DNA of 34,317 nucleotides from Candidatus Poseidoniales archaeon (lineage in GTDB: Archaea > Thermoplasmatota > Poseidoniia > Poseidoniales > Poseidoniaceae): NCBI GenBank assembly GCA_003602605.1, contig QQRW01000041.1, forward strand, positions 1 through 34,317, read 5' to 3'. The position numbers were made by a program, and so were the translations under genes. Numbering within the stretch: the first letter of the stretch is position 1; each line of letters opens with the position of its first letter. The notes under the pieces are model-generated. The model was given only the letters and a program-made list of their open reading frames with translations. It did no database searches and was not told where the DNA came from. This document shows, one piece after another, positions 19,230 through 32,958 of the stretch.

Positions 19230-19272
19230 GTGACTGAACAGTGTGTTTTGTTCGGAGCCGTTGCTCCAGTCC

Positions 19273-20205
19273 ATGTGGACCCCCCAAAATTCCTCTCTTG
19301 AGGCACTTCCTCCCAGCGTTAACTGGCACTTTTGGCCTTGGTGTAATTACGCCTGCACATTCTGCTTTGCTCACTTTGACGACCTGCCAAAGCAGGACAG
19401 GCTTTCCAAGGAGCAAGCACTCAAGATGCCGCAAATGCTTGCAGATGCCGGTGCAACAAAAATCACATTTGTCGGTGGCGAGCCAACACTCTGCCCATAC
19501 CTTGGAGAACTTCTTGAGGGTGCAAAGATTGCGGGTTTGACGACATGTATCGTCTCTAACGGTACGGGATTATCAGAAGAGTTCTTGGAAACTTGGCATC
19601 ATTGCATTGATTGGATTGGACTTTCTATCGATGCTTCAAATGATGTGCTTCACGCCCAAATTGGACGCGGATTGAAACGGGATTTGCGAGAACAACGCAG
19701 TTCTCACCTTGCTGACTCTCTCATTGTTTGGAACCGTTGTGTTCGTTATGGCATCCGAATGAAACTCAATACGGTTGTTAATGCCATGAACCTTGAAGAC
19801 GATATGAGTGAATTGGTTCTCGAGTTACAACCAGAACGTTGGAAAATCTTTCAAGTGCTTCCAGTCGAGGGTCAAAACGATGGTCTTGTTGACCCGTTAT
19901 TGATTGAGGAATCTGAATTTGACACATGGGTAGAACGGCACCGGCATGTGATGGATAAGGGCATTGATTTTGTTCCCGAAAGTAACGATTTGATGCGCGC
20001 ATCGTATGCCATGATGGATGCCCTAGGGCGTTTTTACACAAACGTGAATGGTGGACACGAATACACAAACCCAGTTATGGACATTGGCGTCCTTGAAGCC
20101 TGGAGCGAAAATTGTTTCTTGGAAGAACGTTTCCTCACACGTGGAGGAATTTACAATTGGGCGACAACAAGCAAGATGGAGCGACTAGACGAGGTGATTC
20201 AATGA
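19273..20205 (+). CDS. pVip-like: Viperin-like radical SAM ddh-nucleotide synthase (310 aa)
   Basis: Viperins use SAM and a 4Fe-4S cluster to turn CTP (or GTP/UTP in some prokaryotes) into 3'-deoxy-3',4'-didehydro-NTP, a chain terminator that blocks viral RNA synthesis. The sequence shows SVNWHFWPWCNYACTFCF with the cluster ligands Cys24, Cys28, Cys31; VGGEP at 67-71; KLNTVVNAMNLEDDMSE (viperin KINSVINRFNVEEDM); RWKIFQVLPVEGQN (viperin RWKVFQCLLIEGEN); VPESNDLM..SYAMMDALGRF; and MDIGVLEA...FLTRGGIYNWA. These C-terminal blocks are viperin-specific, not just radical SAM. ATG 19273 leaves 12 residues before the homology; a GTG at 19243 is also possible. Its stop overlaps the AAA+ start. Confidence 0.92.
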   Translation: MWTPQNSSLEALPPSVNWHFWPWCNYACTFCFAHFDDLPKQDRLSKEQALKMPQMLADAGATKITFVGGEPTLCPYLGELLEGAKIAGLTTCIVSNGTGLSEEFLETWHHCIDWIGLSIDASNDVLHAQIGRGLKRDLREQRSSHLADSLIVWNRCVRYGIRMKLNTVVNAMNLEDDMSELVLELQPERWKIFQVLPVEGQNDGLVDPLLIEESEFDTWVERHRHVMDKGIDFVPESNDLMRASYAMMDALGRFYTNVNGGHEYTNPVMDIGVLEAWSENCFLEERFLTRGGIYNWATTSKMERLDEVIQ

Positions 20206-21827
20206 GTGATGAAATTGATGCAGATTTTGATGAAGATATTTTGCGGCCCATTCTTGAATCGGGGGTGTCTCTATGCCAACTGGTTTCTCATGAATGGGAA
20301 CGCGTAGATGGTGCACTCATTACAGCAGCCCTCAGAATGAATCGAACGCTATACAAGTGGAGTGGAGCCTTACGTTTACAACGTTGGAACAACAGTACTT
20401 CACAGTTTGATGCCGTAGATGAAATGATGCCTATTGAATTGATGGAGTGGTTTAGAGATCTTGAAGAGCAAGCCCTCCTCTTAATCGAAGACGGACACAT
20501 CTTACTCGAACCCAACAACGCCGAGCGAGCATTCGTATTATGGTGGCTACGGGAAATGGCGCGTATGCCTAAGCACCAACAAAAGTGCCTCGTAATTGGA
20601 AGTGTTCACCCCACAGTACCTCTTGAATTGGACAAGGAAATGCCACTTCTGCATCTTTCCTTGCCACGTAGAGAGACGCTCGGCATCATATTCGACCATG
20701 TCGTTGCTGAATCCAACCTTCAACCCCATCAAATTGAGAAGAGCGAAGCCTTGCTCGATGCGGCACTGGGCTTGACAATTATGGAGGCAAGATTGGCGTT
20801 TGGTAAAGCCATCGCCGTACGTCAACGCCTAACATCTACCGAGATTGATTTTATCATCGGAGAAAAAGAGCGTATTATTCGGCAAAGTGGTGTCTTGGAA
20901 TACTTTCACCCAAAAACAGGATGGGACGATGTCGGTGGATTAGGGCCGCTTAAGCGATGGCTCAAGAGCCGCGGAAGAGCCTTTTCCTCCCAAGCGAAGG
21001 CGTTTGGACTTGAACCTCCACGAGGCGCTCTTTTGTTAGGCGTTCCAGGCTGCGGAAAAAGCCTCACAGCTAAGGCAGTCGCAGGTTTGTGGAGATTTCC
21101 GCTTCTTCGTTTTGATTTGGGTCGAGTTTTCGGGGGTGTAGTGGGTGAATCTGAAGCTAACATGCGCAAGGCACTTGAGGTAGCCGAAGCAATTTCTCCA
21201 TGCATATTGTGGATTGATGAAATCGAAAAGGGTATGGCCGGCTCCCAAGGTTCAGGCTCACTCGATTCGGGTGTTACTGCCCGTGTGATGGGGACCTTCC
21301 TAACATGGATGCAGGAGAAGCAAGACCCAGTATTTGTTTTTGCTACCTCTAACAACATTAGTCAACTGCCGCCAGAAATGCTACGTAAGGGTCGCTTTGA
21401 TGAAATCTTTTTTGTCGATTTGCCGGCTCAAAAGACCCGAGAGGAAATTCTTCGAATCCATCTCGAGAAGAAAGATCGAGGAGATCTGGCTGAGGACTTT
21501 GATCTAGAAGCTCTTGCAAAGGCTTCTCCTGGCTATTCGGGTGCTGAATTGGAAGAAGCAGTGAAAGATGCGCTCTTCCAAGCCTTTGATGAAGGACGGG
21601 AACTCGAACAGCAAGACATTGCTGCTTCACTTGAGGCGACTTACCCGCTCTCAAAGACAATGCGGGAGAACATCCTTGAGATGCGTAAGTGGGCTAAATT
21701 CCGGGCCCGCCTTGCGTCCGAAGAGGTGACTGAAATCTTGCCTGAAATGACTGAAGAGATTCCAAGGCTTGCAACCGAACGGAGAAACCTCTTTGTGAAG
21801 GAAGGACAACACCCAAATGGAGCATGA
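20202..21827 (+). CDS. ycf46-like: Ycf46-type AAA+ ATPase (541 aa)
   Basis: The AAA+ module occupies about residues 240-480. Walker A is GVPGCGKSLTAKAVA (about 280), Walker B CILWIDEIEKG (about 335), sensor 1 VFATSNNISQLPPE, the arginine finger LRKGRFDEIFFVDLP (about 395), and sensor 2 YSGAELEEAVKDALFQAF. The blocks PLLRFDLGRVFGGVVGESEANMRKALEVAEA and MGTFLTWMQEKQDPVFVFATSNN are the signature of Ycf46, a conserved cyanobacterial/plastid AAA+ family of poorly known role. The N-terminal 230 residues match the degenerate first domain of that family. ATG 20202 overlaps the viperin stop (ATGA) and has GAGGTGA at good spacing. In this operon it probably remodels a nucleic-acid or protein partner. 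The C-terminal 70 residues are charged and helical. Confidence 0.92.
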   Translation: MSDEIDADFDEDILRPILESGVSLCQLVSHEWERVDGALITAALRMNRTLYKWSGALRLQRWNNSTSQFDAVDEMMPIELMEWFRDLEEQALLLIEDGHILLEPNNAERAFVLWWLREMARMPKHQQKCLVIGSVHPTVPLELDKEMPLLHLSLPRRETLGIIFDHVVAESNLQPHQIEKSEALLDAALGLTIMEARLAFGKAIAVRQRLTSTEIDFIIGEKERIIRQSGVLEYFHPKTGWDDVGGLGPLKRWLKSRGRAFSSQAKAFGLEPPRGALLLGVPGCGKSLTAKAVAGLWRFPLLRFDLGRVFGGVVGESEANMRKALEVAEAISPCILWIDEIEKGMAGSQGSGSLDSGVTARVMGTFLTWMQEKQDPVFVFATSNNISQLPPEMLRKGRFDEIFFVDLPAQKTREEILRIHLEKKDRGDLAEDFDLEALAKASPGYSGAELEEAVKDALFQAFDEGRELEQQDIAASLEATYPLSKTMRENILEMRKWAKFRARLASEEVTEILPEMTEEIPRLATERRNLFVKEGQHPNGA

Positions 21828-21837
21828 GGTGGAATCA

Positions 21838-24800
21838 ATGACGGATAATACCTACACGGCTCGCGTCAAGCGAGTGTGGAAGAATCCGCAAGGCGGCCGA
21901 AAGGTTCTGGTCAGTGCCGACGGTGTAGGCGATGCATGGATTGGTTGGAACAAGACGCCAAAAAACATGGAATTCAACCCAGGTGATACGGTGAAAGTCA
22001 AGCTGAAAAAACACGACGACGGTCGCTGGATGGCAACCGAAGTTGTTGTTCGTAATCCTGTCACGAAGGGTAAGAAGGCCAACCAAGCCATGAAGAAAAA
22101 GGAACAAAAGAAAACAAGTTCCTTGGCTAATCGTCTGAAAAAAATGCTAAAGGGGCCTCAAGGCTATCTTCGCAAGATGTACTTGCTGGCACTTGGTGGA
22201 AAAGGTATAGACATGGAAGCCTTAGACGCTCGAACTCAGAGTCTCGGTCCGTTCATCGAGTATGTTGAACTCTCTAAGCAATCCCAGGATCACCTTCGTA
22301 AGCGCGCCCGATTTACATGGGAAATTGTGGAGGATCAGAAAAGAATCAGGGTTTCAAACCGTGAAGCCGTTGACATTCGTGTTCGACGAATACATCTTCC
22401 TTACTGCTTGAGTGAAGATGATACAACCGAACTTACATCAGGAATGAAATTGATGAACCTGAAAAAAGGCGTGACCACTTCAGTCAGAACGGTGCGAAAA
22501 ACTCCATTTGGCCTCGAGTTCTCGACGGAACGAGACCTCCAAGAAAAAGAAGGATGGCAGATTTTTGATGAAAGACAAGCTCCGCTTGAATGGAAACCAA
22601 ATCTCCAAGCAACAGAATTTCAGAATGTTTCCTTAAATGGGCAATCTGTGGACATCAAACATCAAGAAAAATCAAGCGACGATTGGCAGCATCTTATTCT
22701 CGGACACTCTAACCCAACAACGGTTAAAGAAAACGATGTGTTGGTCATTGACGGCTTAGAATTCAGCACCAATGACTGGGATTATGTTCCACCTGGAAAC
22801 ACATTTGGTCCGATGAAGGACGACGTTCGTCAAGTTACCTCAGTCATCCAACTCAACGCAGATGTCCTTGTCGAAGGGCTTCCTGCGGGAAATTTCCTTT
22901 ACGATCCGTACGGAGTAAGGTACTCTGTTAAGGAGACAACGAAAACCTCGAAGGATATCACCTTGGCTGTAAGTCTCGATCCTAAAGTTGAGGAATTACT
23001 CGACGATGATAAAGATGTGAATCCATTGGATGTTCTCTTCTCACCGGATACGGATTTCCGCGAACTCGGTCTTCACGGGCATGACGAACAAGGGCGTTTT
23101 GTAGCCGGTGGGACATTGACAGGTAAACGGAAAGACGGCTCCACCTACCAAACTAAAATGACGGCATTGAGAATTAAGCAGAAAGATATTGAGAGGCAAA
23201 CCATAACCGTAGACCGAGTTCCACCAAATGAAAATGCCCTCTTGACACTCAAGCCAAACGTACGTTACCTTGAGCGTCAACGCGACATGTTGATGATGTT
23301 AAGAGACAGACCATTGTATCACCATGATGGTTTGCTCAAACTGACTGAGGTTGGCAATGAAAATCAACGCGATGCCTTATGGCCAGAATTCTCACCCATT
23401 GTACTCAAAGAAGAAGAGTGGGAAATCCTCAAAAAAAGAGAAGATGGGAGTCTTTATGATGGCACCATTGAACAACGTGAGTTCGTCTGTACTGCGCTCA
23501 GTACGCCGGACTATGCGATTTTACAGGGCCCACCGGGCAGTGGAAAAACCACGGCTATCATTGAACTCATCGCCCAGTGCGCCAAGAAGAATTTGCGCGT
23601 CCTATTGTGTGGGTCGACGCAAGCCTCCATCGATAATGTGTTGACGCGTATCATGGCAAAGCCCCATCTTGCTCACCTTATCTCCCCTTTGCGAATCGGT
23701 TGGAAGGGAGGTATTTACGACGAGAATGTACACCCACTCGTTCTTTCGGAGCAACAAGAACAATACGAGACCATGGGATTCAGCGAAGAGGAAGCTGAGG
23801 ACCTTATTCTTCGACAAAGTAACCTCACCTGCGGAACCATGCAAGGCATACTGAATCATCCTTGGATCAGTGCTGAGCGAAGCTCATCCGGCCGGTTGAT
23901 GAAAGACCCACAGCCTCAGTGGGATGTCTTGATTATCGATGAGGCCAGCAAGACCACCTTTCAACAATTCGTCATTCCAGCAGCCTTTTCCAAGCGCTGG
24001 ATTTTAGTGGGTGATGTTCGCCAACTTCCTCCGTTCTTGGAAACATCAGAGTTAATGACGAACCTCGATCAAATGAAAGATGGAGATGGAAAACCGTTCA
24101 CACACGCAGGACAGAGAGCGTGTCTTCTGCTCCGTCAATTAACTCAAGTAAGACAATCTCCAAAAATACCCCTTGTCTTAATTGAACCGAACGATGTACC
24201 CCTCTACATTGCAAAGGAACTGGAGTCGAGAGAGGAAAAGCTTCGCCCATCCCTCAACATCAGTCTTGTCGGTTCAAAAGAATGCGAGATTGGAGCTTTC
24301 CGTGTTTCAAAACCGTCAGATTTTGAGGACCCAGAACACCACATCGAACTTTTCGGAGCAGATATCATTGTCATCGGCAGCGATGCTTACCACAAAATGG
24401 CTGAATTCCTCCCTCCCTATGCAGTGTTTCGCTCAGGTCGACATGAACTCGGTGCGGTCTCTAAATCACGAATTGAACGTTTGAGAGAGTTGCCCCAGTA
24501 TGATACAGAAAGAGGGCCCTCCCGTTTAGATAAAGATGAACTCAATCACGACTGGTCTCATGAAATTTCATGGCGACTTAACCGAGCGTATGAACTCAAA
24601 GTTTCAAAAAATCAGAATGCTCGCGAAAACTGGGAGAAGCAAATTAACCAACTGCTTCCGAAATCACAAAACGTTGAACAACGCATCGAGGAGGTGCGAA
24701 GCATCGCCTTGCCTTCGGTTTTGGAATGTTTACAGGATGGTTTTGCTGAAGGGCGTGGAAAAGAATTGCTTCCTGAAACGACCCTCACTCGAGGCTTTCC

Positions 24801-25527
24801 AGAAGCTGCCAAGCAATTGAGGTTCAAGAAAATATCATTCCAACACCGCATGCACGGTGAAATCTCAAAGTTTTCTAGGGCTGAATTTTATGAGGGCTCA
24901 GCCTTGAAAGACGCTGACACTATCGATGTTCGGAACCGAGACTTCCCGTTCGATTATCGGTTGAACAAGCATCGTTCGACATGGTTAGACGTGCCGAGCC
25001 AAATCCAAGGAGGGACGAACAAAAAAGAAATCGACGCCATCAGAGCAGTTCTAGAGGATTTCATAGTTTGGGCGAAGAACAATCAACCTCAACAAGGCGC
25101 AAATCGAGACGAGCCTGAATGTTGGGAAGTTGCTCTTCTGTCCCCGTATCAGGCCCAAAGACGCGGATTGAGGGACATGGTCCGCTTATTGACTGGGCTC
25201 CGTTTTGAAACTCGATTTGATCTACGCCAGATGAACCCGCCAACGAACGTCGCCCTTACCGTCAATTCATCCGATAGATTTCAGGGTCAAGAAGCAGACA
25301 TTGTCGTGTTGTCAATGCGAAACGGTGGGCGAAAAGGATTCTTGGACAGCCCTAACAGGATGAATGTGGCGACAACGCGAGCTCGTGAATGGCGGATTAT
25401 TGTCGGGAATTATGATTACTTTTCGGGAGAACAGAAACCAAATCGGGGATCGAAATGTACAGACCCCATGTTAAACGCCTTTGCAAAGGCTCACAAAAAA
25501 GTCTCTTTAAAGGAGTTGAAACAATGA
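21838..25527 (+). CDS. SF1 helicase, Upf1/DNA2-like (COG1112 type), 1229 aa
   Basis: An N-terminal beta-rich segment (YTARVKRVWKNPQGGRKVLVSADG...GDTVKVKLKKHDDGRWMATEVVV) may be an OB- or S1-like nucleic-acid-binding fold. The helicase motifs come later: I, GPPGSGKTT (Gly564 on); II, IIDEAS (Asp701 on); III, VGDVRQLPPF; IV, FQHRMHGEISKFSRAEFYEG; V, VNSSDRFQGQEADIVVLSM; VI, NVATTRAREWRIIVGN (about 1175). About 280 residues lie between III and IV, far more than in a minimal Upf1-like helicase, partly charged and helical, with a basic PLVLIEPNDVPLYIAKELESR segment. ATG 21838 has GAGGTGG upstream and is preferred over ATG 21817. It may unwind or translocate on RNA or DNA. SF1 helicases of this group occur in several phage-defence systems, often with PLD proteins. 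Confidence 0.9.
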   Translation: MTDNTYTARVKRVWKNPQGGRKVLVSADGVGDAWIGWNKTPKNMEFNPGDTVKVKLKKHDDGRWMATEVVVRNPVTKGKKANQAMKKKEQKKTSSLANRLKKMLKGPQGYLRKMYLLALGGKGIDMEALDARTQSLGPFIEYVELSKQSQDHLRKRARFTWEIVEDQKRIRVSNREAVDIRVRRIHLPYCLSEDDTTELTSGMKLMNLKKGVTTSVRTVRKTPFGLEFSTERDLQEKEGWQIFDERQAPLEWKPNLQATEFQNVSLNGQSVDIKHQEKSSDDWQHLILGHSNPTTVKENDVLVIDGLEFSTNDWDYVPPGNTFGPMKDDVRQVTSVIQLNADVLVEGLPAGNFLYDPYGVRYSVKETTKTSKDITLAVSLDPKVEELLDDDKDVNPLDVLFSPDTDFRELGLHGHDEQGRFVAGGTLTGKRKDGSTYQTKMTALRIKQKDIERQTITVDRVPPNENALLTLKPNVRYLERQRDMLMMLRDRPLYHHDGLLKLTEVGNENQRDALWPEFSPIVLKEEEWEILKKREDGSLYDGTIEQREFVCTALSTPDYAILQGPPGSGKTTAIIELIAQCAKKNLRVLLCGSTQASIDNVLTRIMAKPHLAHLISPLRIGWKGGIYDENVHPLVLSEQQEQYETMGFSEEEAEDLILRQSNLTCGTMQGILNHPWISAERSSSGRLMKDPQPQWDVLIIDEASKTTFQQFVIPAAFSKRWILVGDVRQLPPFLETSELMTNLDQMKDGDGKPFTHAGQRACLLLRQLTQVRQSPKIPLVLIEPNDVPLYIAKELESREEKLRPSLNISLVGSKECEIGAFRVSKPSDFEDPEHHIELFGADIIVIGSDAYHKMAEFLPPYAVFRSGRHELGAVSKSRIERLRELPQYDTERGPSRLDKDELNHDWSHEISWRLNRAYELKVSKNQNARENWEKQINQLLPKSQNVEQRIEEVRSIALPSVLECLQDGFAEGRGKELLPETTLTRGFPEAAKQLRFKKISFQHRMHGEISKFSRAEFYEGSALKDADTIDVRNRDFPFDYRLNKHRSTWLDVPSQIQGGTNKKEIDAIRAVLEDFIVWAKNNQPQQGANRDEPECWEVALLSPYQAQRRGLRDMVRLLTGLRFETRFDLRQMNPPTNVALTVNSSDRFQGQEADIVVLSMRNGGRKGFLDSPNRMNVATTRAREWRIIVGNYDYFSGEQKPNRGSKCTDPMLNAFAKAHKKVSLKELKQ

Positions 25528-27188
25528 AAATTCAATTGAAATATACTGGAACTGTGGATGTTTACGACATTAACACAACCTATGCAGCCTCAACAAGAGC
25601 CCCTGGTTTACAGCGACTTTGTCAATGGGCCATGGAAAATACAGGTAAACTCGATGAAGACTCCATTCGAGACGAATATTCTCAGTTATCATCCGGTGCA
25701 GCTCGAAATTTATTCCAAAACGGGATCGTTTCGGGAGTATGGGATGACGATGGGGCCTTAACCGATGAAGGGGAAAAGGCTGCAGAAACGGGTGAAGTCA
25801 TGATCAAAGAAGTGGGGCCTCTTCGAATCTGGGTTTTTGACCACCCATCAACTGGACCCATTCTTCTGCATGCTGACCGATTGACTGCCCTACCGATGGG
25901 TGACGCTGCACCACAAGCTGATCACTCACCAAAAGTGTTGGAAAAAATCTCACAAAATGGTGCCTGCATTAGCCTCCTTTCGGGGGATAAAAAGCGGTGG
26001 AGTGTTCACTGGAATAAAGGCGTTTGGGCATCGGTTGAGAAGTATAGGTCTCGGGCAGATCTTGAATGGCAATGGACTCTTAACGAAGAGAATGAATGGT
26101 TTGCAGAACCAACACTTTCCTTGCGTGGCACCTTCTTGGGTACCACCAAAAACAAGGACCAAGACGGTAAGTCGTTTCGAACAACATGTGCCAACGCCTA
26201 CGAATTCGATCCTGCAGAATGCATTGCTACGTGGCTAAGCCAGGGCCGTTTTTCGAAGAGCCGATGGGATCAGAATCTAAACGGAATGCGTCGACGATTC
26301 GATGAACTCGACACCACCGAGCGCCACCGTTGGACCGTTCACATCGGACTAGAATCTGAAGAAACAGGGCGATGGGCTGGCGAGGTGAACATTGAGGATA
26401 TGCCACTCTACGCTTACAACAACGAAGATGCTTCTTTGTGGATTCAGTACTTAATTCGGGAACACGTGCAAGGCTACACCACCACCGAGGGTGTGGAACG
26501 ACTGCTAACTGAGTTCGTCACTGCCTCGCCGTTTGGTTGGCTCGATGAGAAGAAAATACAAACTCAAGTCCACAAATTATTGGATTCGAACAGAGCCGAC
26601 CAACGCCTCTCTAAACTTCTTTCTGCTGGAGATGACCTCGGGTCCATGGCGTATGTTCCAGAGGTTGCTCAACAACGGCAGGGCATATCAGGAAATATAA
26701 TTCATGATGGAACCAGAGACTACTCTTCGTTCGCTCTAGCCCTCACAGAAGACCTTGGAGGAGAATTGAAGCGAGTTACGGTTGTCGACCGTTATGTCTA
26801 TCGTTCGACATCAATCAAAAAGTTCGGTGCCTTTTCCACAGCCTGTAGTGAACTAGGAAAAGGTGTTGAAGTGCGTTTGCTTACCAGCGAAACCCCATAT
26901 CTCCAAATGTCTACGGATTACACAGAAGAACAAGCTCGGGCAAAGTACGCTGGCAAACTGGCGCCTCATTGCAGTGAAGTTCTGTTCATGGAGTCAACAA
27001 AGGGCGTTATGGCACCACACAACCGTTACATCATTGTTGAATCGAGCAGCGAAACCCGGTTTTTTGAAGGCTCCAACACACTTTTCCAAGGAGAGGGCGA
27101 AAAAAGATTTATTCTGGTCAATCGGATTCTTGAGCCCGACCTATTCAAGCATCTTGAATTGCCGAACAATAAGGAGGAAAAAGCATGA
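25524..27188 (+). CDS. Operon protein with C-terminal PLD-like HxR motif (554 aa)
   Basis: No overall family is recognised. The N-terminal part (about residues 1-110) is helical (LQRLCQWAMENTGKLDEDSIRDEYSQLSSGAARNLFQNGIVSGVWDDDGALTDEGEKAAE) and resembles a winged-helix module. The middle has Trp-rich WSVHWNKGVWASVEKYRSRADLEWQWTLNEE. The end (about 420-554) reads like half a phospholipase-D nuclease: KRVTVVDRYVYRS, VEVRLLTSETPYL, then PHNRYIIVES with His499 and Arg501, and RFFEGSNTLFQGE. Arg replaces the usual Lys of HxK, as in many defence-linked members. ATG 25524 overlaps the helicase stop, with GGAG upstream. A phosphodiesterase, possibly acting with the helicase, is the best guess. Confidence 0.78.
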   Translation: MKIQLKYTGTVDVYDINTTYAASTRAPGLQRLCQWAMENTGKLDEDSIRDEYSQLSSGAARNLFQNGIVSGVWDDDGALTDEGEKAAETGEVMIKEVGPLRIWVFDHPSTGPILLHADRLTALPMGDAAPQADHSPKVLEKISQNGACISLLSGDKKRWSVHWNKGVWASVEKYRSRADLEWQWTLNEENEWFAEPTLSLRGTFLGTTKNKDQDGKSFRTTCANAYEFDPAECIATWLSQGRFSKSRWDQNLNGMRRRFDELDTTERHRWTVHIGLESEETGRWAGEVNIEDMPLYAYNNEDASLWIQYLIREHVQGYTTTEGVERLLTEFVTASPFGWLDEKKIQTQVHKLLDSNRADQRLSKLLSAGDDLGSMAYVPEVAQQRQGISGNIIHDGTRDYSSFALALTEDLGGELKRVTVVDRYVYRSTSIKKFGAFSTACSELGKGVEVRLLTSETPYLQMSTDYTEEQARAKYAGKLAPHCSEVLFMESTKGVMAPHNRYIIVESSSETRFFEGSNTLFQGEGEKRFILVNRILEPDLFKHLELPNNKEEKA

Positions 27189-29218
27189 CTGAAAAAGATT
27201 TGATTCAACCCTATGCCAACACACTCGCCGTCGGCCGTATGTCAGAAACCATCGATGCGGTTTGGATGCGAAACAGCACGGATTCATCGACATCGGAGGC
27301 AATTGCACCGTTTTGGTTTACTGGACCCGAAAACTCGCTTCGAAGCACACTTTGTAGCGCCATCGCAAGAGCGAATGAACGTGTGTTCATTTCCTCCTCA
27401 TACCTCTCTGAGCCTACGGTGATTCAAGCCGTTTCTTCGGCTGTAGAGCGAGGAGTGCGGACCTACCTTCTTTTGGATACCGCAGGATTTGAAGAAGTCC
27501 TCGCAAATTCTGTTGCCCGCCCACTTCATGGAAGAGCATTGATTCGAGAAAGGGATACTCGGGGCATGGACGTCGCCTTGGTAGATTGGCACCTTCCCAG
27601 CAAATGGGGCATGGTAATGGCTTGTTCGTTGGATTTGACACTTTCAGCAACCGAAGGAGGTTGGGGCGTAGAACTTGATGGTGAGCAAATCGATGAAATG
27701 CAACGGCACATAACCCATGAATTCTGGAGCACGAAAGGGACTCGAGAAGTATTGGCAACTGAGGAAGTCAGTCAACCTCCGTTGGTTGCAGAAGCACCTT
27801 TCGTCCTCAAGCCACTGCTCAACGGTGATTTTATCTGTCGTTCTCAGCATTCTACCGAGGGGCATGATGCCTCCTCGGAAGATGCGTTTCGCACCATGAA
27901 AAAATGGACCCATATTAGCAACTCATTGAGCTCACAACAAAGTGTTGCACTGAAAGGGCAATTGGTTGAGTTTGCTGAGAATTCCAAAATATCCGTGTTT
28001 TCAAATCCTGAACAGCATCAACCGTTTACGGGGGCTTTTGCCCACAGCAACGCATCCGTGTTATTGGCGATGGGTAAAAAAGCCTTCATTGCAGGATGGG
28101 ATCGGAGTGCTGAAAGCGATTGGGGTAGTCTCTTGATGTTGAACGACGATCAAAACGCAGCCGCCAAAGTATGGATTGAAAAACATGTAAAAGGAGCGCA
28201 TTGGATTGGAAATGACCAACTCACCATAGGAGATATCAGCGATGAAATCCTTTGGAACGGTCGTCGTATGACCGTTTCTGAGGTTCAAAGTATCGATTTG
28301 AAAACGATCACACTTGAGGAAATGCCTGATTCTCAGGAAACTTTAGAATCGTTCAAGCCCACATTTGAACTCCCCATGGAGGAATTGGCTCGTTCATGCA
28401 ACGTGACTTGGAATGTTCAGCCACCGACACTCGCTCAAAGCACACCTCAGGATTCACTTCATCTTGACTGGGAAAATGCCAAAAACGTTCTCAATGACCG
28501 TTTATCAGCGCTTGATCAGGCGAATCAACCTCCGAAAATCGCTCTCTTTGGGCGAAAAATAAAGGCGTTGCAAACTAAATTAGACAACGCAATGGAGGGC
28601 GTAAGCACATTGAGAACCGTCAAGGCCCTCATCAAGATGAAAGACGAGGTCGAAGGACTCACTCAGAACATCTTGACGAATGCCAAAGCAATGGATGAAG
28701 CGGAGGCTGAAGCTGAAATCGAGAAAGCCAAAGAAGTTCAGATGAAAAAGCATCAATCTAATGTTACGAAAGCGGAAAAAACCGTGAAGAATCTTCAAAA
28801 GAAACTGAAGTCGCTTCAAGATGAACAGAAGGCACTAACGAAACAAGTTGCAAAATCAAAGAAAGAGGAAGAAAAGAAACGGATCAATGCAGACCTTGAA
28901 ACACTCGAACGGACGACTTCCAGCGTTGAGATTGACCTTGCTAAAGCAACTCAAGAAAGCACTGCAACCTTCGCATTCAAACCTCCAAAAGCCAACACTT
29001 CCAACAAGAAGAACAGCGGACATCTGTTTGTTCGTGAAAAAGACGGCCAACTCCTGCCGTTGACCGTTCCCGCAGAAGACCTTCCTGAAACAGGTGAATT
29101 GTATGTTGTAAACGAGCAACGATGGCTAGGAATCAAACGATGGAGTCAAATTGAAATCGCCAAAAAAGAAGCGAAGCGGCTGAAGGCGCAGCTCGCTGTA
29201 ATGGAGGGGAACTCTTGA
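27185..29218 (+). CDS. PLD-like protein with long coiled coil (677 aa)
   Basis: The first 190 residues resemble a phospholipase-D-type domain: ARANERVFISSSYLSEPTVIQAVSSAVERGVRTYLLLDT, then VALVDWHLPSKWGMVMACSLDLTLSATEGGWGVELDGEQIDEMQRHITHEFW. In active PLD nucleases the second block carries HxKxxxD; here no His-x-Lys is visible, so this half may be inactive or structural. Residues about 427-595 are a strong coiled coil rich in Lys and Glu (EIEKAKEVQMKKHQSNVTKAE, LQKKLKSLQDEQ). The C-terminal 75 residues (GHLFVREKDGQLLPLTVPAEDLPETGELYVVNEQRWLGIKRW) look like a small beta domain. ATG 27185 overlaps the previous stop, behind GGAGG. It may act as a scaffold or second PLD half for its neighbour. 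Confidence 0.72.
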   Translation: MTEKDLIQPYANTLAVGRMSETIDAVWMRNSTDSSTSEAIAPFWFTGPENSLRSTLCSAIARANERVFISSSYLSEPTVIQAVSSAVERGVRTYLLLDTAGFEEVLANSVARPLHGRALIRERDTRGMDVALVDWHLPSKWGMVMACSLDLTLSATEGGWGVELDGEQIDEMQRHITHEFWSTKGTREVLATEEVSQPPLVAEAPFVLKPLLNGDFICRSQHSTEGHDASSEDAFRTMKKWTHISNSLSSQQSVALKGQLVEFAENSKISVFSNPEQHQPFTGAFAHSNASVLLAMGKKAFIAGWDRSAESDWGSLLMLNDDQNAAAKVWIEKHVKGAHWIGNDQLTIGDISDEILWNGRRMTVSEVQSIDLKTITLEEMPDSQETLESFKPTFELPMEELARSCNVTWNVQPPTLAQSTPQDSLHLDWENAKNVLNDRLSALDQANQPPKIALFGRKIKALQTKLDNAMEGVSTLRTVKALIKMKDEVEGLTQNILTNAKAMDEAEAEAEIEKAKEVQMKKHQSNVTKAEKTVKNLQKKLKSLQDEQKALTKQVAKSKKEEEKKRINADLETLERTTSSVEIDLAKATQESTATFAFKPPKANTSNKKNSGHLFVREKDGQLLPLTVPAEDLPETGELYVVNEQRWLGIKRWSQIEIAKKEAKRLKAQLAVMEGNS

Positions 29219-29436
29219 AAGAAGAGCGAATTGTTGTAACCATTGATGCAAATGGTGCCATGACGGCCAAAACGACCGGCATCAAAGGCGAACGCTGTAT
29301 CGAGGAGCTGGAAGCGCTTCTTTCGGAACTGGCTGAACTTGATGAAGTGCAACACACCCGTGAATACAAAGAAAAGGATACAACGGTTCGGCACACGACT
29401 CAACAACGCCAACGACTAGGAGGCGGGAATGAATGA
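29215..29436 (+). CDS. DUF2997 family protein (73 aa)
   Basis: The short protein starts RIVVTIDANGAMTAKTTGIKGERCIEELEALLSELAEL, which fits DUF2997 (I.f.I...G.v...v.G..G..C). Members are about 60-70 aa and usually sit beside DUF1257 and a Ycf46-type ATPase in cyanobacteria and other bacteria. The start is TTG, overlapping the preceding stop (TTGA), with GGAGGGG about 5 nt upstream. Its C-terminus is polar (TTVRHTTQQRQRLGGGNE). The function is unknown; it is probably a small adaptor for the DUF1257 protein or the ATPase. Confidence 0.85.
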   Translation: MKEERIVVTIDANGAMTAKTTGIKGERCIEELEALLSELAELDEVQHTREYKEKDTTVRHTTQQRQRLGGGNE

Positions 29437-29900
29437 GCGGTGTCTGGCGAGAGCAAAGCGTGCCGATGGTCGACCAAGAATGCGCCCATTTAGCTCTAGA
29501 AACGATTGGTGCTGTAGTAGCCGACACGTCTCAGGCTCAATGCAGCGTGAGAATCGGTGGACGAACATGGATCATGAGCCACACCAACGGACGGTATGCG
29601 ATTCGATACAACGCCCGACAAGCCGGGAGTCGCCCATCATGGATGGACGGACTTGGTGAAGCTTATGCTCGCCAAGTCCAGTTGAAACAAGAGCGACTGG
29701 CTCGGCGAGAGCAACTCACAACCTTAGATGCGGAACGTGAAGCGATCCGACAAGAGCGAATGGTTATGGAAACAGAGCGAAAAGCCCTGATTGAAACTCG
29801 GAAGGCCACCGTCATTAAGCAAGCAAAAGCCCTCGGCTATCGAGTTAAGGAAACCGTCCAAAACGGAGAGGTACGCTTAGTACTTGTAAAATCGGGATGA
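29433..29900 (+). CDS. ycf35-like: DUF1257 (Ycf35-like) protein with inserted coiled coil (155 aa)
   Basis: The ends fit DUF1257: LALETIGAVVADTSQAQCSVRIGGRTWIMSHTNGRYAIRYN near the start, and KQAKALGYRVKETVQNGEVRLVLVKSG at the end (family: ...A...GY.v.ee...dG.irLvl.r). Between them (about residues 75-125) lies a charged coiled coil (QVQLKQERLARREQLTTLDAE, RQERMVMETERKALIETRKA) that is longer than in the usual plastid or cyanobacterial members. ATG 29433 overlaps the DUF2997 stop, with GGAGGCG upstream. Its partner family DUF2997 precedes it, and the Ycf46-type ATPase is in the same operon. The biochemical role is unknown. Confidence 0.78.
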   Translation: MSGVWREQSVPMVDQECAHLALETIGAVVADTSQAQCSVRIGGRTWIMSHTNGRYAIRYNARQAGSRPSWMDGLGEAYARQVQLKQERLARREQLTTLDAEREAIRQERMVMETERKALIETRKATVIKQAKALGYRVKETVQNGEVRLVLVKSG

Positions 29901-29908
29901 GGTTGAAC

Positions 29909-30481
29909 ATGAAGATACAGATTGGACATACATTGGAAAGCAGTGAAATCTACGGACCTGGGCTTAGAAGTGTCCTTTGGGTTCAAGGTTGCACACTGGC
30001 TTGCAAGGGTTGTTGGAACACACAATATTGGTCATCGACCGGTGGCATAACAACATCAGTGGACGAAATTGTGGAAAAATGGGCATCTACTCCGGAATTA
30101 GAGGGCATCACCCTTCTGGGAGGTGAACCACTCCAGCAAGTTGGTCCCGTTCATGCCCTTATTCGAGGTGCTCGTCGAATGGGCCTCTCGGTTTTTCTTT
30201 ACACGGGATATGAACCGGAAGAATTGAGCACAGATATGCTCGATTGCTTCAACATGAGCGACATCGTGGTCACCGGCCGATACGTTCACGAACTGAGAAA
30301 CACTAACCTTCGGTGGCGAGGTTCAACCAACCAAATCGTTCATTTTCCTACACCCCGCTACCAGGCCCTTGACATTGAAGAACAGCACGAGGTCGAAGTC
30401 CATCTATCCAGTGAGGGAGAACTCTCGGTGTATGGATACGCCACTGACGAGTTCCTTACATCCATTGAGGTGAAATCATGA
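29909..30481 (+). CDS. NrdG-like radical SAM activase (190 aa)
   Basis: The protein has the small radical SAM layout of activases: IYGPGLRSVLWVQGCTLACKGCWN with cluster cysteines Cys28, Cys32, Cys35, then ITLLGGEPLQQ (GGEP at 71-74), FLYTGYEPEEL and DIVVTGRYVHELR, as in anaerobic ribonucleotide reductase activases. Such enzymes make a glycyl radical on a partner, but no NrdD-like or other glycyl-radical protein is in the window. About 60 residues after the core (from about 130: NTNLRWRGSTNQIVHFPTPRYQ...) form an extra tail. ATG 29909 has GAGGT 5 nt upstream; ATG 29897 overlaps the DUF1257 stop and is an alternative. A second radical SAM enzyme beside viperin is notable. Confidence 0.85.
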   Translation: MKIQIGHTLESSEIYGPGLRSVLWVQGCTLACKGCWNTQYWSSTGGITTSVDEIVEKWASTPELEGITLLGGEPLQQVGPVHALIRGARRMGLSVFLYTGYEPEELSTDMLDCFNMSDIVVTGRYVHELRNTNLRWRGSTNQIVHFPTPRYQALDIEEQHEVEVHLSSEGELSVYGYATDEFLTSIEVKS

Positions 30482-32958
30482 CTGAAGAAGAACAACAAGA
30501 AAAAATAGGAACGATTGACAAATACTTCCCCGACAGAGGATTTGGTTTTCTTGAAGACGACCTTTTCTTCCACATCGAAAAGACTCCTGAGGAAATCCAC
30601 CCCTTTTTAGAAGAGGGTTTGAAAGTAAATTACACAGAAGTAATGGGAAACAAGGGGCTGACTGCCATTATTTCCTCAACCGTAGAACAATTGCAGAAAG
30701 AGATATTCAACGGTGATTATACTATCATCGACCCCAAAAAAATCCTTTTACCAGAAACCATCGAAATCATTCAAGCCACAATTGAACAGAGAGGAGCAAT
30801 CTTAATTCCGGGCATCTTGAGTAGGTTCCCAGAAGATTTTGGGGAAGTCAAGAAATATAAAGAGAGAAAATTGATGGGGAAAATTGAGGAGTTTCTTAAG
30901 GAGACATTTAGCGACTCAAGTGTTGCCGATTTCGACCTCTTTTCTGCACAAAAGAAAGGAAGTATTACTTCAATCATAGGACATCCTTTCTTACAGGAAA
31001 CTTCGCCTTTTACTTGGCTCATACGCAAAAAAAGCGTCGACGTATCCTTCAATCCGAGAAAGGGAATTCCTGATGCATTGTTGCAGTTCATCTACTCCCA
31101 TATCATCGAAAATCACAAGGATTGTTGGACCATTGTTGGAGATGAAACCGGCGACTTAGGAGAATTTAGTGGCGAGGAACCTAAGAACCATCATTCTGCA
31201 ATGTGCTGGGTTGTCATTCCACCACAATCAAAACTACCTGGATTACCATCAGGGTTTCATGTTCATGAAGATGAAAACTATATGCTAATAGCCACTGATA
31301 ACCTCAGCGAATCAAATGATGTCGACATATACCAGTTCAAATACGCATCAGGCAATACAATTGAGGGTGTCCCGTTAGAATCTGCGCAAGTTCACCTGAA
31401 TCTGTGGAAGGATACATTACCCCTCGTGTTAAACAAAATTTCCGAACACTCAAATCGAACGCCGAAGGTTCGAATTTACATTGAACAAGTGGGTAATCTT
31501 GAGCCAGGAACCAATCCAGTCACAGCCCTTCTTTCAAATTGGAAACTTGCAATGGGCGATGAGTGGGTGAACATCGAGAAGGCCACGGTCCTTGCAAAGA
31601 GTCCTCTTGAACATCCTTGGCTTGGGTATCCCGATGCTGTTGGTTTCATCAATTCCCCGAGATCTTGGAATAATCCGGAATTGAAACCAAAGATTGCTCA
31701 ACTCAAGAAGCGATTAGTTGAATCGCCTTACCGTCAATACGAACTCGGTAAAATCAACGGGTTGTTCATGACGCCCGGTCAAACCCCAGTTCAATTTGTC
31801 AAGGCACTCTTTGATTTCCCTCAGCGGGATATGAAGGAATACATCGTTGAATACTATGGGCAGCAACTAAGAAAGCGAATTCAAGTGTTGAATGGACGCG
31901 ATTGGCATACGATTCTAGAAGAGATGGAACAGCATTCTGGTGCTCTTCAAGGCCAAAACGCTACTTCCGTTATCTTCGATCATACGGATATTGAGGCTAC
32001 ATTGTCTCAATTGAGAACAGACTCGTTGAAATTCAACTTCTTAATGGCCCTTTTGGGCTGTTCAAACCACAACGGTGATACAGAGCGTTCCCAATTTTGT
32101 AAAAACAATATTGTTACATTGATGGATTCTGAATTTGAACCTACTCGGCAACAAAAAATGCATTTCCTCAATCTGTCAAATGGAGCAAACGACAATGAAT
32201 TTGATTTCAGCATTGATAATGAAGAGATTTTCTCACTTCTCGAAGAGGTCAAGGATGGATTCCAAAATGATGATGAACGCAAACTTGCAGGGGCATATGC
32301 TCTAACCCTCGGACTTCGCTGCAGTGAAGACGACCTCAACATTGCATGGGACATAGAAGAACTTCTGCGTGGGGACTCATGTAGGGATCCTCTTGGCACA
32401 AATCACGCAAGGCGACTCAACATCAAAGCGGAACTCATGCTTGCGAAAGGAGAATATGTCAAAGCTCGGAGCTTCATGGAAGTTGAAATACCAGAAGAGA
32501 TCGAAAATTCACTTCCAGACCTGCTTCGACAAGACGGCTTTTTTGTGGCAGCCCTCATGAAAGCATGCGCTCTTAGTGAAGAAGATGCAGGGAAGTTTGA
32601 GGAATACTCAAGCTATGTTCCTGCCTTGTTGGACAAAAGGCACCCATCTCAACGAATAGCCTACTGGACAGCACGTTGGGCATGGCAAATCGGACGAGAG
32701 AATGATTCAGTGGTGCAACTTTGCACAGAACATCTCATTGAATTAACAAAGCAAGAAATTTTCACAAAAGAAGCACCCGGAGTAATACTCTCATGTGAAC
32801 TTCTCGACCTACACATACTCGGCTTGGTTGAGTTTGATGTTCAAGGATTCCATCAAACCGTCTTGGAAAATTCAACCGCATCAACCAGGGCTTGGGTCGA
32901 AGAACACACACCAAATGATGACGATTGGTTGGCTCCTTTAACGTACAATTACCGATAA
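30478..32958 (+). CDS. Cold-shock-like / DUF3800-like / helical-repeat fusion (826 aa)
   Basis: Residues about 8-65 resemble a cold-shock/S1-like RNA-binding fold: GTIDKYFPDRGFGFLEDDLFFHIEK...LKVNYTEVMGNKGLTAI, with the aromatic RGFGF and LFFHI patches. After a linker, about 215-390 looks like DUF3800, an RNase-H-fold putative nuclease: IVGDETGD (Asp222, Glu223, Asp226), RIYIEQVG (Glu336) and GYPDAVGFINS (Asp386). The order of acidic residues suits a metal site. The rest (about 400-826) is helical, with TPR-like pieces such as KAELMLAKGEYVKARSFMEVEI. ATG 30478 overlaps the preceding stop, with GAGGTGA upstream. It would be an RNA-binding nuclease and probably the effector of the operon, but that is inference. 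Confidence 0.78.
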   Translation: MTEEEQQEKIGTIDKYFPDRGFGFLEDDLFFHIEKTPEEIHPFLEEGLKVNYTEVMGNKGLTAIISSTVEQLQKEIFNGDYTIIDPKKILLPETIEIIQATIEQRGAILIPGILSRFPEDFGEVKKYKERKLMGKIEEFLKETFSDSSVADFDLFSAQKKGSITSIIGHPFLQETSPFTWLIRKKSVDVSFNPRKGIPDALLQFIYSHIIENHKDCWTIVGDETGDLGEFSGEEPKNHHSAMCWVVIPPQSKLPGLPSGFHVHEDENYMLIATDNLSESNDVDIYQFKYASGNTIEGVPLESAQVHLNLWKDTLPLVLNKISEHSNRTPKVRIYIEQVGNLEPGTNPVTALLSNWKLAMGDEWVNIEKATVLAKSPLEHPWLGYPDAVGFINSPRSWNNPELKPKIAQLKKRLVESPYRQYELGKINGLFMTPGQTPVQFVKALFDFPQRDMKEYIVEYYGQQLRKRIQVLNGRDWHTILEEMEQHSGALQGQNATSVIFDHTDIEATLSQLRTDSLKFNFLMALLGCSNHNGDTERSQFCKNNIVTLMDSEFEPTRQQKMHFLNLSNGANDNEFDFSIDNEEIFSLLEEVKDGFQNDDERKLAGAYALTLGLRCSEDDLNIAWDIEELLRGDSCRDPLGTNHARRLNIKAELMLAKGEYVKARSFMEVEIPEEIENSLPDLLRQDGFFVAALMKACALSEEDAGKFEEYSSYVPALLDKRHPSQRIAYWTARWAWQIGRENDSVVQLCTEHLIELTKQEIFTKEAPGVILSCELLDLHILGLVEFDVQGFHQTVLENSTASTRAWVEEHTPNDDDWLAPLTYNYR

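What the first reader, a model, noticed from the sequence alone, without database searches (positions are those of the whole stretch)
25524..29218. Paired PLD-like proteins with altered catalytic motifs beside an SF1 helicase
The 554-aa protein has HNRY (HxR) where active PLD enzymes have HxK, and the 677-aa protein has a PLD-like fold with no visible HxK. PLD enzymes need two motifs, so the two proteins could make one composite site or a binding-only platform. Helicase plus PLD is known from the Mokosh and DISARM phage-defence systems, which supports a defence reading.
Basis: partly seen in the sequence, partly recalled or inferred. Interest (0 to 1): 0.6.

Follow-up and report, generated by a model that had tools for sequence, protein, structure and literature searches.

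The report
Viperin-linked helicase operon, inactive PLD pair
A marine archaeon carries a tightly packed operon that joins an antiviral viperin to a helicase and two phospholipase-D-like proteins; one of these has lost its active site across its whole branch, the other carries a conserved motif shared with a human cell-division protein, and the set looks like a widespread but apparently unnamed antiviral machine.

Summary
The 554-aa protein (PLD1) ends in a PLD-like domain with H499-N-R501; the 677-aa protein (PLD2) has two PLD lobes and no HxK. Neither is random decay. H499 and R501 are the only invariant columns among 29 homologues. By fold and profile this domain is closest to the C-terminal domain of human MITD1, which has the same His-Asp-Arg motif. 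Helicase-PLD1-PLD2 is a conserved trio (83 of 85 loci) in two forms. Form B (RtcR/CARF regulator) has both HxK motifs in PLD2 (38/38) and a short PLD1. Form A (this window) has none in PLD2 (0/36), usually carries the HDR domain on PLD1, and adds an AAA+ ATPase, DUF2997, DUF1257 and an NrdG-like radical-SAM protein. A composite PLD1/PLD2 active site is unsupported: form A PLD2 has no conserved histidine. Defence is well supported; membership of Mokosh or DISARM is not met. Most likely: a nucleic-acid-targeting defence complex with PLD2 as scaffold.

The parts
19243..20205 (+). Prokaryotic viperin (pVip), radical SAM with CX3CX2C (CNYACTFC); first gene of the operon
   Evidence: NF038283 268.8 bits (cut-off 180); PADLOC pVip 2.8e-76; stop codon overlaps next ATG by 4 nt
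20202..21827 (+). AAA+ ATPase, Cdc48/IetA-like, Walker A GVPGCGKS and Walker B intact; form A marker gene
   Evidence: Pfam AAA 1.4e-29; 42-78% identical homologue beside the helicase in about 30 loci; motifs. Start placed at ATG 20202
21817..25527 (+). SF1 (UPF1/IGHMBP2-like) helicase, 1236 aa, Walker A GPPGSGKTT, DEAS
   Evidence: AAA_11/AAA_12; PADLOC MkoA 219 bits; relatives
25524..27188 (+). PLD1, 554 aa: N-terminal winged helix (24-88), middle domain ending in a conserved A..DL motif, C-terminal MITD1-like PLD half
26679..27185 (+). C-terminal MITD1-like (MIT_C-type) PLD-like domain of PLD1 (residues 386-554)
   Evidence: Foldseek/VIA hits to MITD1; profile A6 hits MITD1 first in PDB, E 0.01, with HDR on HDR
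27018..27026 (+). Invariant His-x-Arg (H499-N500-R501) of PLD1
   Evidence: only invariant columns in 29 homologues
27185..29218 (+). PLD2, 677 aa: two PLD lobes (residues 38-360) without HxK, then coiled coil (424-592)
29215..29436 (+). DUF2997 small protein (73 aa, TTG start overlapping the PLD2 stop)
   Evidence: PF11211 32.9 bits, cut-off 24.1; same small ORF in all 28 form A loci readable at this junction
29433..29900 (+). DUF1257-like (Ycf35-like) protein, 155 aa
   Evidence: homologue L050:11261-11755 hits PF06868 31.6 bits, cut-off 22.2; found in 28 loci
29897..30481 (+). NrdG-like radical-SAM activase, CX3CX2C intact
   Evidence: Fer4_12 2.9e-32; NrdG model 113.8 bits, below its 126.1 cut-off; homologue in 29 loci
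30478..32958 (+). Cold-shock domain protein, 826 aa, rest unassigned; lineage-specific accessory
   Evidence: CSD 2.6e-4; homologue without the CSD part only in L047
33069..34235 (+). 388-aa protein with weak DUF4145 similarity; lineage-specific accessory
   Evidence: homologue only in L047, 74% identical over the 177 aa that the contig holds

Best explanation
This is an antiviral operon of a marine archaeon built on a conserved trio: an SF1 UPF1-like helicase, a winged-helix protein (PLD1) and a two-lobe PLD protein (PLD2). In this branch (form A) the PLD2 lobes have lost catalysis and most likely serve as a nucleic-acid or protein platform (inferred). PLD1 carries an appended MITD1-like domain whose invariant His-x-Arg pair is the only conserved candidate active or phosphate-binding site left in the two PLD proteins (shown by conservation; the chemistry is inferred). 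The helicase and the Cdc48-like AAA+ ATPase would load or remodel viral nucleic acid, more likely RNA (inferred from the UPF1-like helicase, RtcR/CARF partners and viperin chemistry), and the DUF2997/DUF1257/NrdG-like radical-SAM group would supply an iron-sulfur or radical-dependent modification or activation step (inferred, weakest part). Viperin is coupled to the machine by overlapping genes. From its known chemistry it makes chain-terminating nucleotides, so it would act in parallel or feed terminated transcripts to the helicase complex (speculative).
For: Trio conserved: PLD1 homologues in 83 of 85 sources, PLD2 in 74, next to the helicase. Form B PLD2: H138, K140, N161, H308, K310, N325 invariant in 38/38; form A: no His column reaches half of 36. 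Form A PLD1: only H499 and R501 invariant. MITD1 match by fold and by profile, HDR aligned on HDR. Helicase tree splits into a side with all AAA/NrdG loci and a side with all RtcR loci, support 94 each. Viperin overlaps AAA by ATGA and precedes the trio in 5 of 14 Asgard pVips, with a divergent CARF-winged-helix gene in 4. In two further archaeal genomes the locus pVip is the only one found. Flanks hold AbiE, MkoA, Jet, WYL, Csx1 and other defence families. RtcR_PspF1 partner E 4.5e-209.
Against: Five form A loci (L058, L059, L064, L067, L110) have neither HxK in PLD2 nor the HDR domain on PLD1, so a nuclease in either PLD protein is not essential everywhere. MITD1 is known as a membrane-binding adaptor, so HDR may not be catalytic. 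No assay; no complex model; RNA as target is only inferred. The viperin link in Poseidoniales rests on one locus: relative L046 has the AAA gene without a viperin in front.
Confidence: 0.5

Rival explanations
1. Binding-only machine: both PLD proteins are non-catalytic. PLD2 is a scaffold, and the HDR domain of PLD1 binds phosphates (RNA ends, lipids or protein) as in MITD1. The effect comes from the helicase, the AAA+ remodeller and viperin.
For: Five form A loci lack both motifs. PLD2 lobe 1 resembles non-catalytic FAM83 DUF1669 and TrmBL2. MITD1 is described as a PLD-fold protein that binds membranes (title of Hadders 2012, cited in PMC9477494).
Against: Absolute conservation of exactly H and R in 29 divergent domains is more typical of chemistry than of loose binding.
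Confidence: 0.3
2. Composite PLD site shared by PLD1 and PLD2.
For: Genes overlap by 4 nt and travel together; PLD chemistry normally needs two histidines.
Against: Form A PLD2 has no conserved histidine, and both HxK motifs are gone in all 36. A PLD1 homodimer could supply two HxR motifs without PLD2.
Confidence: 0.04
3. RNA repair or stress-response system rather than antiviral defence; viperin is an incidental neighbour.
For: RtcR, the partner in form B, is a regulator of RNA repair (PMC4012209); DUF2997-DUF1257 occurs with ferredoxin fed7 in cyanobacteria (PMC4284462), a housekeeping setting.
Against: Repeated viperin linkage, patchy spread (4 of 340 class genomes), defence-island flanks, plasmid carriage near cas and dnd genes.
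Confidence: 0.15

Closest known systems
Form B module: SF1 helicase + 369-aa protein + two-HKD PLD + RtcR_PspF (CARF-AAA-HTH), e.g. Vibrio aerogenes plasmid NZ_AP024863
   Same: Homologous helicase (33% id), PLD1 core, PLD2; same gene order helicase-PLD1-PLD2
   Different: PLD2 motifs intact, PLD1 without HDR domain, RtcR in place of AAA+/DUF2997/DUF1257/NrdG-like. No name found for it here
Mokosh (MkoA/MkoB; MkoC)
   Same: MkoA-type SF1 helicase (219 bits) and a PLD protein (weak MkoB hit, E 1.3e-4)
   Different: No kinase on the helicase, no helicase-PLD fusion, PLD2 without HxK, many extra genes
DISARM (DrmC)
   Same: PLD2 and its relatives resemble DrmC (window E 4.7e-4; form B NF038319 106 bits, cut-off 133)
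   Different: No SF2 DrmA, no DUF1998 DrmB, no methylase in the operon
CoCoNuT type III-C (CnuH UPF1-like helicase; CnuE winged helix + two PLD), PMC11090510
   Same: UPF1-like helicase with a winged-helix/PLD partner; RtcR links in other CoCoNuT types; RNA-target prediction
   Different: No McrB GTPase or McrC in the operon
Human MITD1 C-terminal PLD-like domain
   Same: Fold (VIA Z 10.6) and HDR motif; 'DPYIR' against 'DRYVR'
   Different: 15% identity; attached to a MIT domain, no helicase partner
Prokaryotic viperins (pVip)
   Same: The first gene is a pVip above the curated cut-off
   Different: Part of a large helicase/PLD/AAA operon; the passages I could search in two papers on archaeal viperins (PMC11291487, PMC12988326) showed no such operon

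Membership tests
PLD superfamily, PLD2 | Two-lobe PLD fold | tested here: met
   AlphaFold model, VIA Z 16.0 to 7e0m over 254 residues; Foldseek E about 1e-7
PLD superfamily, PLD2 (active enzyme) | HxK motifs for catalysis | tested here: not met
   absent in the window and in all 36 form A sequences
MITD1-like (MIT_C-type) PLD domain, PLD1 C-terminus | Fold of the MITD1 C-terminal domain | tested here: met
   top Foldseek and VIA hit, Z 10.6
MITD1-like (MIT_C-type) PLD domain, PLD1 C-terminus | Match to a curated sequence family | tested here: inconclusive
   Pfam scans of 29 members gave no MIT_C hit; a profile search against PDB sequences links it to MITD1 at E 0.01
pVip viperin | Score over the NF038283 cut-off; CX3CX2C motif | tested here: met
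   268.8 vs 180 bits; CNYACTFC
Mokosh type I | Helicase with a serine/threonine kinase domain plus MkoB PLD | tested here: not met
   no kinase domain in the 1236-aa helicase; MkoB only 19.4 bits. The definition of Mokosh is from memory
Mokosh type II | Helicase-PLD fusion (MkoC) | tested here: not met
   PLDs are separate proteins
DISARM | DrmA SF2 helicase, DrmB DUF1998, DrmC PLD, methylase | tested here: not met
   helicase is SF1; no DUF1998 or methylase among the proteins scanned
CoCoNuT | McrB-type GTPase and McrC | tested here: not met
   no McrB/McrC hit among operon proteins
PLuB system (NF040671) | Helicase over the 999-bit cut-off | tested here: not met
   105.7 bits
DUF2997 | Pfam gathering score | tested here: met
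   window protein 32.9 over 24.1
DUF1257 | Pfam gathering score | tested here: inconclusive
   over the cut-off for homologue L050, not for the window protein itself
NrdG (anaerobic RNR activase) | Score over the TIGR02491 cut-off | tested here: not met
   113.8 vs 126.1 bits; NrdG-like, not shown to be NrdG

The most novel reading that the evidence does not exclude
A whole branch of helicase-PLD defence systems moved its chemistry: PLD2 lost both HKD sites while PLD1 gained a one-motif HDR phosphodiesterase of the MITD1 type, working as a homodimer in an RNA-targeting complex coupled to viperin; human MITD1 would then descend from a prokaryotic immune effector.
Probability: 0.15. Interest if true: 0.85.

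Novelty: new variant of a known kind. Interest (0 to 1): 0.6.

Why it matters
It shows a recurrent genetic link between viperin and a helicase/PLD machine in archaea, including Asgard archaea, from which eukaryotic viperin is thought to come. It also gives a testable case of a protein pair in which one partner turned into a pseudo-enzyme while the other acquired a conserved motif of unknown chemistry, shared with human MITD1.

Tried and rejected
Composite PLD1/PLD2 active site: no conserved His in form A PLD2. Chance HxK regex hits in some form A PLD2s: they lie outside the PLD motif positions, several in the coiled coil. Conserved non-coding RNA in the ~200-nt gap between PLD2 and the DUF1257 gene: it is a coding gene, DUF2997. 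Relatives in viral contigs: none for PLD1 or for the helicase alignment. PLD2 on plasmids: no direct hit. PADLOC models for form A PLD1: none of use. Pfam MIT_C hit: not obtained. Search with n=1: uninformative. Papers on RNA-repair systems (Burroughs and Aravind 2016), conflict systems (JB 2020), CARF classification (2020), prokaryotic viperins (Bernheim 2021, Shomar 2024) and the MITD1 structure (2012) were not held, so prior description of parts of this set cannot be excluded.

Full report
The window is a contig of a 2.0-Mb archaeal genome; its nearest relatives are Poseidoniales (marine group II) assemblies.

PLD1. No Pfam family matches. An AlphaFold model from 29 homologues (pLDDT 81) shows a winged helix at 24-88 and a C-terminal alpha/beta domain at 387-536. 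Its best solved match is the C-terminal domain of human MITD1 (Foldseek E 1.4e-3 and 4e-3; VIA Z 10.6, rmsd 3.0, 126 residues), ahead of polyphosphate kinase (8.3), SauUSI (8.1), Tdp1 (7.5) and NucT (7.4). A profile of the domain alone finds MITD1 first in PDB sequences (E 0.01; the next, unrelated, hit is 0.07), with MITD1 'IHDRE' aligned on the conserved HDR. In 29 sequences from archaea, Myxococcota, Planctomycetota, Pseudomonadota, Spirochaetota and others, H499 and R501 are the only invariant columns. So HxR is the family signature, not a damaged HxK.

PLD2. The model (pLDDT 81) has two PLD lobes (residues 38-360; VIA Z 16.0 to a PLD, 15.4 to NucT, 15.7 to the FAM83B pseudo-PLD) and a coiled coil at 424-592. 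No HxK is present.

Conserved trio and two forms. tblastn of the helicase found Vibrio and Pontibrevibacter plasmids with helicase, a ~369-aa protein, a PLD protein and RtcR side by side. A genome scan gave 80 further loci. PLD1 homologues were found in 83 of 85 sources and PLD2 in 74. Form B: helicase ~900 aa, PLD1 ~370 aa, PLD2 ~510 aa with both HAK motifs, usually an RtcR (CARF-AAA-HTH) gene. Form A: AAA+ ATPase, helicase ~1100 aa, PLD1 ~556 aa, PLD2 ~680 aa, DUF2997, DUF1257, NrdG-like radical SAM. The catalytic H, K and N of both lobes are invariant in 38 form B PLD2s; in 36 form A PLD2s no histidine column reaches half. The helicase tree puts the two forms on two sides (support 94 each; quick method, midpoint root), which fits one change of state. 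Five form A loci (L058, L059, L064, L067, L110) have a short PLD1 without the HDR domain and no HxK in PLD2. Hence neither PLD protein can be the indispensable nuclease in every member.

The rest of the window operon. Junctions overlap by 4 nt: viperin/AAA, helicase/PLD1, PLD1/PLD2, PLD2/DUF2997, DUF2997/DUF1257, DUF1257/NrdG-like, NrdG-like/CSD. The apparent ~200-nt gap after PLD2 is a DUF2997 gene, present in all 28 loci that show this junction. DUF2997-DUF1257 is known beside ferredoxin fed7 in cyanobacteria (PMC4284462). The last two genes are lineage-specific, shared only with L047.

Viperin. The first gene is a pVip (268.8 bits against a cut-off of 180). Only 10 of 293 genomes of the order carry one over the cut-off; none of the other nine could be shown next to this module, and one 86%-identical copy (L030) lies at a contig edge. 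In the Asgard phylum 14 pVips were found in 13 of 227 genomes. Five stand just before the helicase (L117, L148, L151, L155, L159), four with a divergent CARF-winged-helix gene; L148 and L151 have a kinase-like gene in between. A rough estimate of my own: a random gene lies within 3 kb of one module in a 3.7-Mb genome with p about 0.0016, so 5 of 14 is far beyond chance. Several of the other nine lie on short contigs and cannot be judged. In L110 a pVip overlaps a second, cut, helicase-like ORF (by eye).

Defence context. RtcR_PspF1 partner, type III CRISPR and Dnd genes near the plasmid copies, and among 117 flank proteins hits to AbiE, MkoA, Jet, WYL, Csx1, CARF and others (no control set was run).

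Mechanism. Shown: gene overlap, folds, motif conservation and loss, linkage. Inferred: nucleic-acid remodelling by helicase and AAA+, PLD2 as platform, HDR as active or phosphate-binding site, RNA as target. Speculative: that viperin products and the helicase complex act on the same transcripts.

Known or new. It is not Mokosh, DISARM, CoCoNuT or PLuB by their defining features. No name was found in Pfam, NCBIfam, PADLOC or the papers I could open, but several key papers were not available, so parts may be described already.

Noticed in passing
L022, L025, L028 (G107, G294, G035): Other Poseidoniales viperins: L022 and L028 have a nucleotide-kinase-like gene and then a large protein, which in L028 (1190 aa) is a different SF1 helicase; L025 is cut. 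A second viperin-helicase arrangement.
   Followed up: partly
L148:10644-11366, L151:1419-2135: A gene that looks like an amino-acid-kinase-fold kinase (by eye) lies between viperin and the helicase; it may phosphorylate the viperin substrate or product.
   Followed up: no
L047:5415-7456: PLD2 is split over two overlapping frames in this Poseidoniales assembly; frameshift, assembly error or real split not resolved.
   Followed up: no
window 30478-32958: 826-aa cold-shock-domain protein with an unassigned middle part ('IVGDETGDLG', DUF3800-like by eye) and helical C-terminus; the L047 homologue lacks the cold-shock part.
   Followed up: partly
L030:1-599: A viperin 86% identical to the window's lies at a contig edge of G198, so its downstream genes are unknown.
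   Followed up: no
L110:1-2619: A second helicase-like ORF of this family overlaps the viperin gene, about 6 kb from a complete form A operon: two related modules in one island.
   Followed up: no
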